This document shows, piece after piece, positions 4,616 to 11,518 of a stretch of 39,211 nucleotides of DNA (positions are counted from its first letter, which is position 1; every line of letters starts with the position of its first letter). The stretch comes from Archaeoglobaceae archaeon (lineage in GTDB: Archaea; Halobacteriota; Archaeoglobi; Archaeoglobales; Archaeoglobaceae). The DNA is taken from NCBI GenBank assembly GCA_027064525.1, contig JAMOPJ010000033.1, forward strand, positions 1-39,211, in the 5' to 3' direction. The notes under the pieces were generated by a model that saw nothing but the letters and a program-made list of their open reading frames with translations, did no database searches and had not been told where the DNA came from. Made by a program: the position numbers and the translations under genes.

Positions 4616-6016
4616 ATGATGCTTTCAGCTCACAAGACGAAGATAATAGCTACGATAGGCCCATCTTCAAACTCAAAGGAGGTTTTGAGAAAGCTTATAA
4701 GGTCGGGAATGAGCATTGCAAGGATAAACTTTGCCCATGGATGTTTTGAGGAACATGCCAAGGTCGTTGAGAGAATAAGATCTATTGCGGAGAGGCTTGA
4801 AAGGAGAGTTGCGATTTTGGGTGATCTACCCGGAGTAAAGATAAGGATCGGAAAGCTTGAAAAAGAGCCGATAATTCTGAACAGAGGTCGGAGGGTTGTG
4901 CTCACTACAAGGGATATCGAGGGAAACGATACTGAAATACCGGTGGAGTTCAAGGATTTTCCGAAGATCGTGAGTAAGGGTGATGTGATCCATCTAAACG
5001 ACGGATACATCAAGCTGAAAGTTGAAGATGTCAAAAACGGGGATGTTATCTGTAGAGTTTTGGTTGGGGGCAAACTGTTCAGCAGGAAGGGGATAAACGT
5101 TCCGAAGGCAGAGTTGCCCCTCGAAGCCTTAACTGAAAGAGATTTTGAAATCCTCGAATTCATGATCGAGCTCGGTTTTGATGCAGTAGGGGTTTCTTTT
5201 GTCGGATCTGCTTACGACATAATCAAAGTCAAGAGATTCGTTCAAAAACGTTCGGAGATGTTCGTAATAGCAAAGATTGAGAGGGTTGATGCTGTCAAGA
5301 ACTTCGACGAGATCCTGAGTTCTTCGGATGGCATAATGATAGCCAGAGGCGATTTGGGCGTCGAGATCCCGATCGAAAAACTCCCGATAATTCAAAAGAA
5401 GTTGATAAGGAAAGCTAATTATGAAGGAAAGCCAGCGATAACCGCCACGCAGATGCTCGAATCGATGACTACTGATAAGATGCCTACGAGGGCTGAGGTG
5501 ACGGATGTTGCCAACGCGATCTTGGATGGGAGCGATGCAGTGATGCTTTCCGAGGAAACGGCGGTTGGAAAGTATCCTGTTGATGCTGTTAGGATGATGG
5601 CTAAGATCGCGAGAACTACGGAAACGTATCTGAAGCCAACTCTGGATGTTGAGGAGATACGGAAGGGTGGAACGATAAAGGATGCGATTTCCGTAGGGAT
5701 AATCGAGGCTTTGAGAATCGTTAACGTCAAGTTCATAGTTACGCCTACTAAGACAGGCAGAACTCCTCGCCTTATCTCTCGATTTAGGCCAAAGCAGTGG
5801 ATATTGGCATTCAGTGATAACGAAAGGACTTGCGGAGGTTTGATGTTCTCATACGGCGTTCAGCCATTTTTACTTGAGGAGGGGTTTGATGAGACGAATA
5901 TTATGAAGCTTCTCAAGGATCTTGGTCTGTTGAAGTCGGGGGACACGATTATGATAACGGAAAGCAGGCCGGCTGAGGTTGGGACAAACACTATAAGGAT
6001 TCTGAGAGTAGATTGA
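4616..6016 (+). CDS. pyk: Pyruvate kinase
   Basis: Catalyses phosphoenolpyruvate + ADP to pyruvate + ATP, the last glycolytic step, in the cytoplasm. The 466 residues cover the usual A, B and C domains: TKIIATIGPSS at the N-terminus, the catalytic-lysine signature IAKIERVDAVKNFDEIL near 219, IARGDLGVEIP (Mg/phosphate site) near 241, ITATQMLESM near 275, and a C-terminal domain ending in GTNTIRI. No extra PEP-utiliser domain is present. ATG at 4616 or 4619 are both possible; AGGA lies 8 bp before. Monocistronic: a long non-coding gap precedes it and a guide RNA follows immediately. Confidence 0.97.
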   Translation: MMLSAHKTKIIATIGPSSNSKEVLRKLIRSGMSIARINFAHGCFEEHAKVVERIRSIAERLERRVAILGDLPGVKIRIGKLEKEPIILNRGRRVVLTTRDIEGNDTEIPVEFKDFPKIVSKGDVIHLNDGYIKLKVEDVKNGDVICRVLVGGKLFSRKGINVPKAELPLEALTERDFEILEFMIELGFDAVGVSFVGSAYDIIKVKRFVQKRSEMFVIAKIERVDAVKNFDEILSSSDGIMIARGDLGVEIPIEKLPIIQKKLIRKANYEGKPAITATQMLESMTTDKMPTRAEVTDVANAILDGSDAVMLSEETAVGKYPVDAVRMMAKIARTTETYLKPTLDVEEIRKGGTIKDAISVGIIEALRIVNVKFIVTPTKTGRTPRLISRFRPKQWILAFSDNERTCGGLMFSYGVQPFLLEEGFDETNIMKLLKDLGLLKSGDTIMITESRPAEVGTNTIRILRVD

Positions 6017-6077
6017 TATGGGATGATGATGGACCTCCTTACTGATGCGTGATGAGAGAGTCCCGTTCTGACCTCCA
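6017..6077 (+). ncRNA. C/D-box guide RNA (2'-O-methylation guide)
   Basis: All four boxes occur in order at archaeal spacing: C ATGATGA (6023-6029), 12-nt guide TGGACCTCCTTA, D' CTGA (6042-6045), 3-nt spacer, C' GTGATGA (6049-6055), 12-nt guide GAGAGTCCCGTT, D CTGA (6068-6071). Every box matches consensus. Under the N+5 rule the first guide would methylate the G in UAAG-G-AGGUCCA and the second the G in AACG-G-GACUCUC; I did not identify the target RNAs. It begins right after the pyk stop, so it may be processed from the pyk transcript, and it is antisense to the end of the membrane-protein gene at 6039. Confidence 0.8.
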
Positions 6078-6482
6078 CACCTTCTCCAAATCTTCTTTAA
6101 ATATCTTTGGGAGAACTATCGGTATTCCGATGTGCCTCTCAAGCACCACGAAATCCCCTTCGGCCCTTATCCTCTTGAAGTTCTTCCAACGGATGAGTTG
6201 CCCGTTTATTCGAATACCAGTCGAAGTGATTTCGTAGGTTTTAGGTTTCGTCGACTGGTAAATCAATATGATAGGATATATCACCGTGAAATAGCATGCA
6301 TAGAATATCCAGAATGCCGTGGATATGCAGAATCCGTATTTGGATATGAGATAGCAGTTATACCAGAAGGCGAATACTCCAAGGACGGGTATTATAAAAA
6401 TCAGCTTCATCTTTCCGGAGAGCTCGAACCTCTTAAATCTCTCGAACTCAAATCTCCTGTCACTTTTGAAAACTACTCTCAC
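6039..6482 (-). CDS. Small membrane protein with cytosolic PH-like tail
   Basis: A 147-residue protein, not assigned to a named family. Residues 1-22 are basic, two hydrophobic segments follow (about 26-45 and 53-76), and the rest (YEITSTGIRINGQLIRWKNF, then FVVLERH) has the beta-strand look of bacterial PH-like domains in small two-helix membrane proteins. That resemblance is by eye. Its 3' end overlaps the C/D RNA on the other strand. It is transcribed divergently from the Cys-rich gene at 6518, with only 35 bp between the starts. Confidence 0.7.
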   Translation of the reverse strand: MRVVFKSDRRFEFERFKRFELSGKMKLIFIIPVLGVFAFWYNCYLISKYGFCISTAFWIFYACYFTVIYPIILIYQSTKPKTYEITSTGIRINGQLIRWKNFKRIRAEGDFVVLERHIGIPIVLPKIFKEDLEKVWRSERDSLITHQ

Positions 6483-6517: not shown

Positions 6518-7000
6518 GTGAGCGTTGAGGATAGAATTACGCTCGCAAAAGTCATTTATAATCGATTTGGGGACGAGTTGAAGAGTAGATACAATGAAAT
6601 CCTACGCAAGCTCGATGAGGCAATAGATGAAACTTGGAGATACATGCGCTCCACTGGAATCACGGAAATCTGCAAGCAGTGTGCGTTGGAGACTGGAAGT
6701 TGTTGTCGGAGATGGGTTGAAGATCTATACGATGAGATTATCTTGGTGATAAATCTGCTGTTGGGCGTTGAATTTCCAAAGGAAAGGTTTAAAGAAGAAC
6801 TTTGCTTCTTTTGTGGGAAGAACGGTTGCATGCTTAGGGCAAGGGAGGGGACTTGTGTAACCTATCTATGCGATAGGATCGATGTGGATAGAACGGAGTT
6901 CAACAAAGTTTGCTCGTTAGAGCTTGGATATCTGTCGTTGTTAAAGGTTAAGATAAGGAGATTCATCGATCAGAGGGTTCCACGATCCTCATCGCCTTAG
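6518..7000 (+). CDS. Cysteine-rich protein, possible metal/Fe-S binder
   Basis: A 160-residue protein starting at GTG, probably leaderless (ATATAACT lies about 25 bp upstream). The N-terminal third is helical and charged. Cysteines cluster as CKQCALETGSCCRRW (about residues 51-65) and CFFCGKNGC followed by GTCVTYLC, a layout like the zinc/iron-chelating proteins of the YkgJ type. The clusters suggest one or two metal sites; no catalytic motif is seen. The last few codons overlap a candidate minus-strand C/D RNA, so the C-terminal residues may be poorly conserved. Confidence 0.75.
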   Translation: MSVEDRITLAKVIYNRFGDELKSRYNEILRKLDEAIDETWRYMRSTGITEICKQCALETGSCCRRWVEDLYDEIILVINLLLGVEFPKERFKEELCFFCGKNGCMLRAREGTCVTYLCDRIDVDRTEFNKVCSLELGYLSLLKVKIRRFIDQRVPRSSSP

Positions 7001-7030
7001 CTCGGATTCTGGCGGTTTCATCATCCTCAA
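6965..7030 (-). ncRNA. Candidate C/D-box guide RNA, minus strand
   Basis: On the minus strand: C ATGATGA (7024-7018), 12-nt guide AACCGCCAGAAT, D' CCGA (7005-7002, one mismatch to CTGA), 6-nt spacer, C' GCGATGA (6995-6989, one mismatch), 15-nt guide GGATCGTGGAACCCT, D CTGA (6973-6970). Spacing fits an archaeal sRNA, but two boxes are off consensus and the 3' half overlaps the end of the Cys-rich gene, so this is weaker than its neighbours. Its C box lies 39 bp from the C box of the plus-strand sRNA at 7056, making a divergent pair. Confidence 0.45.
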
Positions 7031-7055: not shown

Positions 7056-7124
7056 GTTTTCGATGATGAGGGTAGCTCTACGCTGAGCGATCGCGATGAA
7101 GAGCTCGAACCCGCTGATTCAAAC
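7056..7124 (+). ncRNA. C/D-box guide RNA
   Basis: C ATGATGA (7063-7069), 13-nt guide GGGTAGCTCTACG, D' CTGA (7083-7086), spacer, C' GCGATGA (7093-7099), 14-nt guide AGAGCTCGAACCCG, D CTGA (7114-7117). GTTT before the C box can pair with AAAC after the D box as a terminal stem. The D guide is complementary to CGGGTTCGAGCTCT, which resembles a tRNA T-arm (GGTTCGA), so a tRNA target is possible; the D' guide's target is unknown. The C' box differs from consensus at one base, as is common. Confidence 0.75.
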
Positions 7125-11175: not shown

Positions 11176-11185
11176 TAATAAAAAT

Positions 11186-11497
11186 GGTGGGCACGCCTCG
11201 GGTCGACCCGCCTAACGGAAAGCAGTCCGATCCGACCTCTCCTCCCCGCACCCCCGAAAGCGCCGGTCGTCCGGGGTAAGCCTGCTCCCTTCCGGGCCTG
11301 GGCCGGTCCCCCCGGCAAACACGGCGGTGCATTCCTCCAAATGCACCTACCGTGACCGCCGACCCTTCGGGACGGGGACTCTGCGAGATCGGATCGGACT
11401 GGTGATTTCCGCTCGGCGGGCCTTCCCTCGGCTTCGGCCCCCGCGTATCGACGGTTTCGGGTTACAGGGGACGCCGAACCCCCCGGCCTAGCCCACC
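11186..11497 (-). ncRNA. ffs: Signal recognition particle 7S RNA
   Basis: A 312-nt GC-rich block in an AT-rich setting. On the minus strand the ends pair (5' GGTGGGC with 3' GCCCACC). The helix 8 core reads CCAGGCCCGGAAGGGAGCAG, the SRP54-binding signature, and helix 6 is GGTGCATTT-GGAG-GAATGCACC with its GNAR tetraloop for SRP19. Length and both hairpins match archaeal SRP RNA. The particle targets nascent membrane and secreted proteins to the Sec translocon. Ends were set by the terminal helix and could be off by a few bases. Confidence 0.97.
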
Positions 11498-11518
11498 AAT
11501 CCTTATGAACACTGCAAG

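What the first reader, a model, noticed from the sequence alone, without database searches (positions are those of the whole stretch)
6017..6077. Four-box C/D sRNA immediately after pyk
C, D', C' and D boxes are all consensus with 12-nt guides. It abuts the pyk stop codon and is antisense to the 3' end of the gene at 6039, so it may be released from the pyk mRNA.
Basis: partly seen in the sequence, partly recalled or inferred. Interest (0 to 1): 0.5.

Follow-up and report, generated by a model that had tools for sequence, protein, structure and literature searches.

The report
Archaeal RNA-methylation guide after pyk
This is a small guide RNA of a heat-loving archaeon that most likely directs a methyl-adding enzyme to the large ribosomal RNA and probably to a few tRNAs; it belongs to a well-known class, though its likely two-target design is mildly unusual.

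Summary
A canonical four-box archaeal C/D sRNA lies at 6023-6071 (+), 6 nt after the pyk stop codon, in an Archaeoglobaceae genome. None of 300 simulated windows holds such a motif. It sits 2-6 nt after the pyk stop in all 5 held genomes of the genus; 45 of 49 core columns are invariant while flanks change. Strict patterns did not find it in the other 54 genomes of the class. The genome encodes fibrillarin and, beside it, a Nop-domain protein.

Targets are predicted, not shown. The D' guide has 10 contiguous Watson-Crick pairs with 23S rRNA (G1157 of the one same-genus 23S available). Only its two unpaired positions vary among the five genomes. The D guide has 11 contiguous Watson-Crick pairs with the anticodon arm of tRNA-Glu(CUC) (target G29), and 9 plus wobbles with tRNA-Lys(CUU) and tRNA-Gln(CUG). 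A weaker 23S site with two G-U pairs, 105 nt from the D' site, is the rival.

Verdict: ordinary in kind, a new genus-specific member of the archaeal C/D box sRNAs. The likely mixed rRNA/tRNA pairing is the only mildly notable point. Expression and methylation are untested.

The parts
6023..6071 (+). C/D box sRNA, core from C box to D box
   Evidence: four-box match once in window, 0 in 300 simulated windows; 45 of 49 columns invariant in 5 genomes
6023..6029 (+). C box ATGATGA
6030..6041 (+). D' guide TGGACCTCCTTA; inner 10 nt pair with 23S AAGGAGGTCC, predicted Gm at LSU 1157 of G004
6042..6045 (+). D' box CTGA
6049..6055 (+). C' box GTGATGA (3-nt linker 6046-6048 before it)
6056..6067 (+). 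D guide GAGAGTCCCGTT, invariant in 5 genomes; 11 Watson-Crick pairs to tRNA-Glu(CUC) 26-36, rival 23S site with 2 G-U
6068..6071 (+). D box CTGA
4616..6016 (+). pyk, pyruvate kinase; probable host transcript
   Evidence: ORF, Pfam; sRNA 2-6 nt behind its stop in 5 of 5 genomes
6039..6482 (-). antisense ORF of 147 aa without a Pfam match; 3' end overlaps the sRNA in this genome

Best explanation
It is an archaeal box C/D sRNA. The RNA is probably transcribed as the tail of the pyk message (possibly also from its own promoter). The C/D and C'/D' kink-turns bind L7Ae, Nop5 and fibrillarin, which protect it while the rest is trimmed. The D' guide pairs with 23S rRNA AAGGAGGUCC and directs 2'-O-methylation of the G opposite guide nucleotide 5 (G1157 in the G004 23S). 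The D guide most likely pairs with the anticodon arm of tRNA-Glu(CUC), and perhaps tRNA-Lys(CUU) and tRNA-Gln(CUG), directing methylation at G29. Shown: anatomy, conservation, complementarity in register, presence of fibrillarin and Nop-domain genes. Inferred: transcription, processing, RNP assembly, both methylations, and which of two D-guide targets is used. The confidence given is for its being a C/D methylation guide; I hold the 23S D' target at about 0.8 and the tRNA reading of the D guide at about 0.5.
For: Strict four-box motif: 1 observed, 0 in 300 simulated windows. Same place behind pyk in 5 of 5 genus genomes; 45 of 49 core columns invariant against 5 of 60 and 6 of 60 in ungapped flanks. 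The antisense ORF reads into the sRNA in another frame in the sisters, so the conservation is of RNA rather than of that protein. D' guide: 10 contiguous Watson-Crick pairs in 23S including position 5; shuffled guides reach this in 1.0% (own guide) or 2.8% (sister guide) of 20,000 cases; it meets the rule of at least nine pairs in Dennis et al. 2015 (PMC4644070, section 16 read); only the two unpaired guide positions vary. D guide: 11 contiguous pairs with tRNA-Glu(CUC) in G000, with the same stretch in the tRNA-Glu(CUC) of G002 and G004; shuffled guides reach 11 in tRNAs in 0.04% and in rRNA plus tRNA in 0.26%. Fibrillarin in 5 of 5 genomes, with a Nop-domain gene beside it in the window's own genome.
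Against: No transcript or methylation data. No 23S was found in the window's own genome and only part of 16S, so within the genus the D' target was read from G004 only. The D' match alone is only moderately beyond chance (1-3%). The stretch TACGGGACTCTC was not found in a tRNA of G001 or G003, though the guide is conserved there; the tRNA may be unassembled or different. Guide position 1 is invariant though it does not pair with tRNA-Glu either. I found no report of a guided methylation at G29 (one listing, and passages of PMC2584109). The lone fold pairs the two guides with each other (z -1.54, 21 of 200 shuffles fold as well).
Confidence: 0.93

Rival explanations
1. Ordinary double guide on 23S: the D guide acts on 23S GACGGGGCUC (G1262 of G004, E. 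coli about 1136), 105 nt from the D' site, so that both guides bracket the stretch between and may aid its folding. The tRNA match would be chance.
For: 10 contiguous pairs with 2 G-U at the right register, 105 nt from the D' site; only 40 of 3000 shuffled guides do as well within 150 nt of the D' site. About half of 489 archaeal sRNAs (262) were predicted to be double guides, and pairing rules were relaxed for a small number of them (PMC4644070 section 16).
Against: Two wobble pairs against a 23S stretch that was identical at GGACGGGGCTCAAG in the 12 of 12 family 23S loci inspected, where a Watson-Crick guide would be easy to evolve; the longest all-Watson-Crick run including position 5 in the rRNA tested is 6; the two 5' guide nucleotides are invariant though unpaired here.
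Confidence: 0.35
2. The sRNA is made from its own promoter rather than from the pyk message.
For: A TATA-like ACTATAAGG lies about 25 nt upstream of the sRNA, inside the pyk 3' end, and is kept in G001-G003.
Against: It is not kept in G004, it lies in codons that may be held for the protein, and a review says only 20% of the archaeal C/D genes studied have a TATA-like motif in the 50 nt upstream (PMC7994747 section 9).
Confidence: 0.25
3. Chance box pattern without function.
For: Every element is short and no expression data exist.
Against: 0 of 300 simulations; conservation in 5 of 5 genomes while the flanks and, in G004, the downstream region change.
Confidence: 0.02

Closest known systems
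Archaeal box C/D sRNAs with two guides (as in Sulfolobus, Pyrococcus, Pyrobaculum)
   Same: C RUGAUGA, D' CUGA, C' UGAUGA, D CUGA, guides of 12 nt, short internal linker, gene next to a 3' end of an ORF, rRNA complementarity in N-plus-five register
   Different: sequence and guide pair found only in this genus among the 59 genomes of the class searched with strict patterns; D guide fits a tRNA better than rRNA
tRNA-directed archaeal C/D sRNAs (for example those for position 34 of tRNA-Leu, tRNA-Met, tRNA-Trp named in PMC7994747 section 6)
   Same: guide complementary to an anticodon arm
   Different: predicted site is G29 in the stem, shared by up to three tRNAs, and the other guide has an rRNA target, whereas the review says that in Pyrobaculum the other guide of tRNA-directed sRNAs has no target

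Membership tests
Archaeal box C/D sRNA | C, D', C', D boxes in order with guides of about 10-13 nt | tested here: met
   consensus boxes, guides of 12 and 12 nt
Archaeal box C/D sRNA | Conservation of boxes and guides in relatives | tested here: met
   5 of 5 genomes of the genus, 45 of 49 columns invariant. Outside the genus: D' pattern in 0 of 54 genomes of the class; D pattern in 2 of 54, four places, with no C/D boxes seen around them
Archaeal box C/D sRNA | Guide-target complementarity of at least nine Watson-Crick pairs spanning the N-plus-five nucleotide | tested here: met
   D' 10 pairs in 23S of G004, D 11 pairs in tRNA-Glu(CUC) of the own genome
Archaeal box C/D sRNA | Genome encodes fibrillarin and Nop5 | tested here: met
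   fibrillarin in 5 of 5; Nop-domain gene beside it in the window's genome
Archaeal box C/D sRNA | Genome encodes L7Ae | not tested
Archaeal box C/D sRNA | Stable transcript bound by L7Ae/Nop5/fibrillarin | not testable with these tools
   needs RNA
Archaeal box C/D sRNA | 2'-O-methyl at the predicted nucleotides | not testable with these tools
   needs RNA
Rfam family of sRNAs | match to a curated family at gathering score | tested here: not met
   only SRP RNA matched in the window
Double-guide sRNA on one rRNA | both guides pair within about 100 nt of each other on one rRNA | tested here: inconclusive
   105 nt apart in 23S, but the D pairing has 2 G-U

The most novel reading that the evidence does not exclude
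A mixed-target guide RNA: one arm methylates 23S rRNA in the helix-42 region, the other methylates G29 in the anticodon stems of tRNAs with C34 and U35 (Glu-CUC, Lys-CUU, Gln-CUG), a site and combination not seen in the passages I read, so that one sRNP made from the pyk transcript would serve both ribosome and tRNA maturation.
Probability: 0.5. Interest if true: 0.4.

Novelty: new member of a known kind. Interest (0 to 1): 0.22.

Why it matters
It adds a clean, genus-specific C/D sRNA with a clear footprint in a genus known here only from metagenome-assembled genomes. It also shows how such an RNA holds its place behind a host gene while the region on the other side turns over. If the tRNA target is confirmed, it would be an example of one sRNA serving both rRNA and tRNA.

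Tried and rejected
mRNA targets of the D guide: exact AACGGGACTCTC occurs away from the sRNA once in G000 and once in G004, in unlike contexts, and not in G001-G003, so not a conserved target. The 1-mismatch hits were only partly inspected: 30 of 57 had loci. tRNA reading of G003 and G001 hits: ARAGORN found no tRNA there, and the G003 context and one G001 context resemble each other. Homologues outside the genus: 4 hits of the D pattern in two genomes of another genus show no C/D boxes by eye, and three share one context that looks coding. Anti-Shine-Dalgarno action: the CCTCC core of the D' guide resembles the 16S 3' end; nothing was tested, and the 23S site explains the inner 10 nt. A first 23S alignment held four loci in reverse orientation; it was redone, where the E. 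coli equivalent of the D' site moved from 1038 to 1031, so that number is approximate. Of 45 tRNA matches in the window's genome (list cut), the 32 listed were fetched and tested; 13 were not. 5S rRNA and RNase P RNA were not tested as targets. Diverged homologues outside the genus would be missed by the patterns.

Full report
What is there. At 6023-6071 (+) the window reads ATGATGA-TGGACCTCCTTA-CTGA-TGC-GTGATGA-GAGAGTCCCGTT-CTGA, that is C box, 12-nt guide, D', 3-nt linker, C', 12-nt guide, D, with GG before and CC after. A strict form of this pattern occurs once in the 39 kb and in none of 300 simulated windows; a looser form occurs twice against a mean of 0.0033. No Rfam family matched it at gathering score. 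The box consensus as such is recalled, and agrees with a passage of PMC2584109.

Where it is. The window is contig C33 of a 1.89 Mb genome. Three sister genomes of the same genus carry contigs of the same length as named Archaeoglobaceae MAG records (G002, G003, G004). pyk ends 6 nt before the C box. In the other four genomes of the genus held, the same sRNA lies 5, 5, 5 and 2 nt behind the pyk stop. The class search returned 59 genomes, 5 of them in this genus. The 49-nt core has 45 invariant columns; ungapped flanks of 60 nt have 5 and 6 (small indels lower the flank counts, and the gapped alignment shows the pyk end moderately conserved). The downstream antisense ORF of the window has homologues in G001-G003 (41, 42 and 51% in the best segments), whose tails run into or through the sRNA in another frame, and none was seen in the G004 locus. 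The sRNA is therefore conserved as RNA, and its antisense overlap looks incidental. The D' pattern found it in 5 of 59 genomes of the class, all in this genus. The D pattern found the same five and also hit two genomes of another genus, four places without visible C/D boxes.

Machinery. Fibrillarin is present in 5 of 5 genomes of the genus, and a Nop-domain gene precedes it in the window's genome. L7Ae was not tested.

Targets of the D' guide. No 23S was found in the window's genome and only a partial 16S, so rRNA of G004 was used. The D' guide pairs with 23S AAGGAGGTCC through 10 contiguous Watson-Crick pairs, guide position 5 facing G1157 of that 23S, equivalent to E. coli about 1031-1038 (alignment ambiguous), which I recall as the helix-42 region. 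Shuffled guides reach 10 pairs including position 5 in rRNA in 1.0% (own guide) or 2.8% (sister guide) of 20,000 cases each. Among the five genomes the D' guide varies only at positions 1 and 12, the two that do not pair. The 23S stretch AAAGGAGGTCC is present in 9 of the 12 family 23S loci inspected, AAAGGAAGTCC in the other 3, so the target is more widespread than this guide.

Targets of the D guide. It is invariant in the five genomes. Its best rRNA site has 10 contiguous pairs with 2 G-U at 23S G1262, 105 nt from the D' site; 40 of 3000 shuffled guides do as well within 150 nt of the D' site. Its best site overall is tRNA-Glu(CUC): 11 contiguous Watson-Crick pairs with nucleotides 26-36, position 5 facing G29 (numbered by hand from the anticodon position given by ARAGORN). 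This tRNA has the same stretch in G000, G002 and G004. Shuffled guides reach 11 in tRNAs in 0.04% and in tRNA plus rRNA in 0.26%. tRNA-Lys(CUU) and tRNA-Gln(CUG) share CGGGACTCT at the same place, with 9 Watson-Crick pairs plus two and one G-U. 32 of 45 tRNA matches of the genome were tested. The stretch was not found in a tRNA of the G001 and G003 assemblies. I judge the tRNA reading more likely than the 23S one, roughly 3 to 2: the prior favours double guides on rRNA, the match strength favours the tRNA. The odds are a judgement, not a computation.

How it is probably made. A review says that most archaeal C/D genes do not need own promoters, that 25% of those studied overlap an upstream 3' end, that others lie less than 25 nt from a gene, and that sRNP formation would protect the RNA while its ends are trimmed (PMC7994747, section 9 read). 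A position 2-6 nt behind pyk in all five fits release from the pyk transcript. A TATA-like ACTATAAGG about 25 nt upstream, kept in four of five, leaves an own promoter possible. This is inference.

Against what is known. Dennis et al. 2015 (PMC4644070; abstract and sections 5, 7 and 16 read) identify 489 C/D sRNAs in seven archaea; the word Archaeoglobus and the phrase helix 42 do not occur in the main text, and its supplementary site lists were not open to me. The review (PMC7994747; abstract, section 4 part 1 of 2 and section 9 read) describes tRNA-directed sRNAs in Pyrobaculum as having one tRNA guide and one without a target. Six paper searches that ran (for other papers only listings and starts of abstracts were seen, and passages of PMC2584109) listed no paper that by title or abstract start reports this sRNA; the library lacks most subscription papers. 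It is a new member of a known kind.

Noticed in passing
window 7063-7117 (+): A second C/D sRNA (ATGATGA...CTGA...ATGAAGA...CTGA) upstream of ileS, also matched in the G001 and G002 loci but not in those of G003 and G004; its D guide has 10 Watson-Crick pairs with the T-arm of tRNA-His and 9 with tRNA-Met and tRNA-Val.
   Followed up: partly
window 6970-7024 (-): A divergently placed third C/D sRNA with a weaker D' box (its sister version in G001 and G002 matches the full pattern); its D guide has 11 Watson-Crick pairs with 23S at position 1431 of the G004 LSU, 12 in the sister version.
   Followed up: partly
window 5990-5998 (+): TATA-like ACTATAAGG inside the pyk 3' end, about 25 nt before the sRNA; kept in G001-G003, not in G004.
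   Followed up: partly
window 11185-11498 (-): Archaeal signal recognition particle RNA.
   Followed up: no
window 4616-6016 (+): A pyk homologue was found in only 24 of 60 genomes searched (own included), and the window's pyk is nearer to Thermococcus-type records (61-63% by best segment) than to those of other genera of its own family (45-53%), which hints at transfer; the two calls measure identity differently.
   Followed up: no
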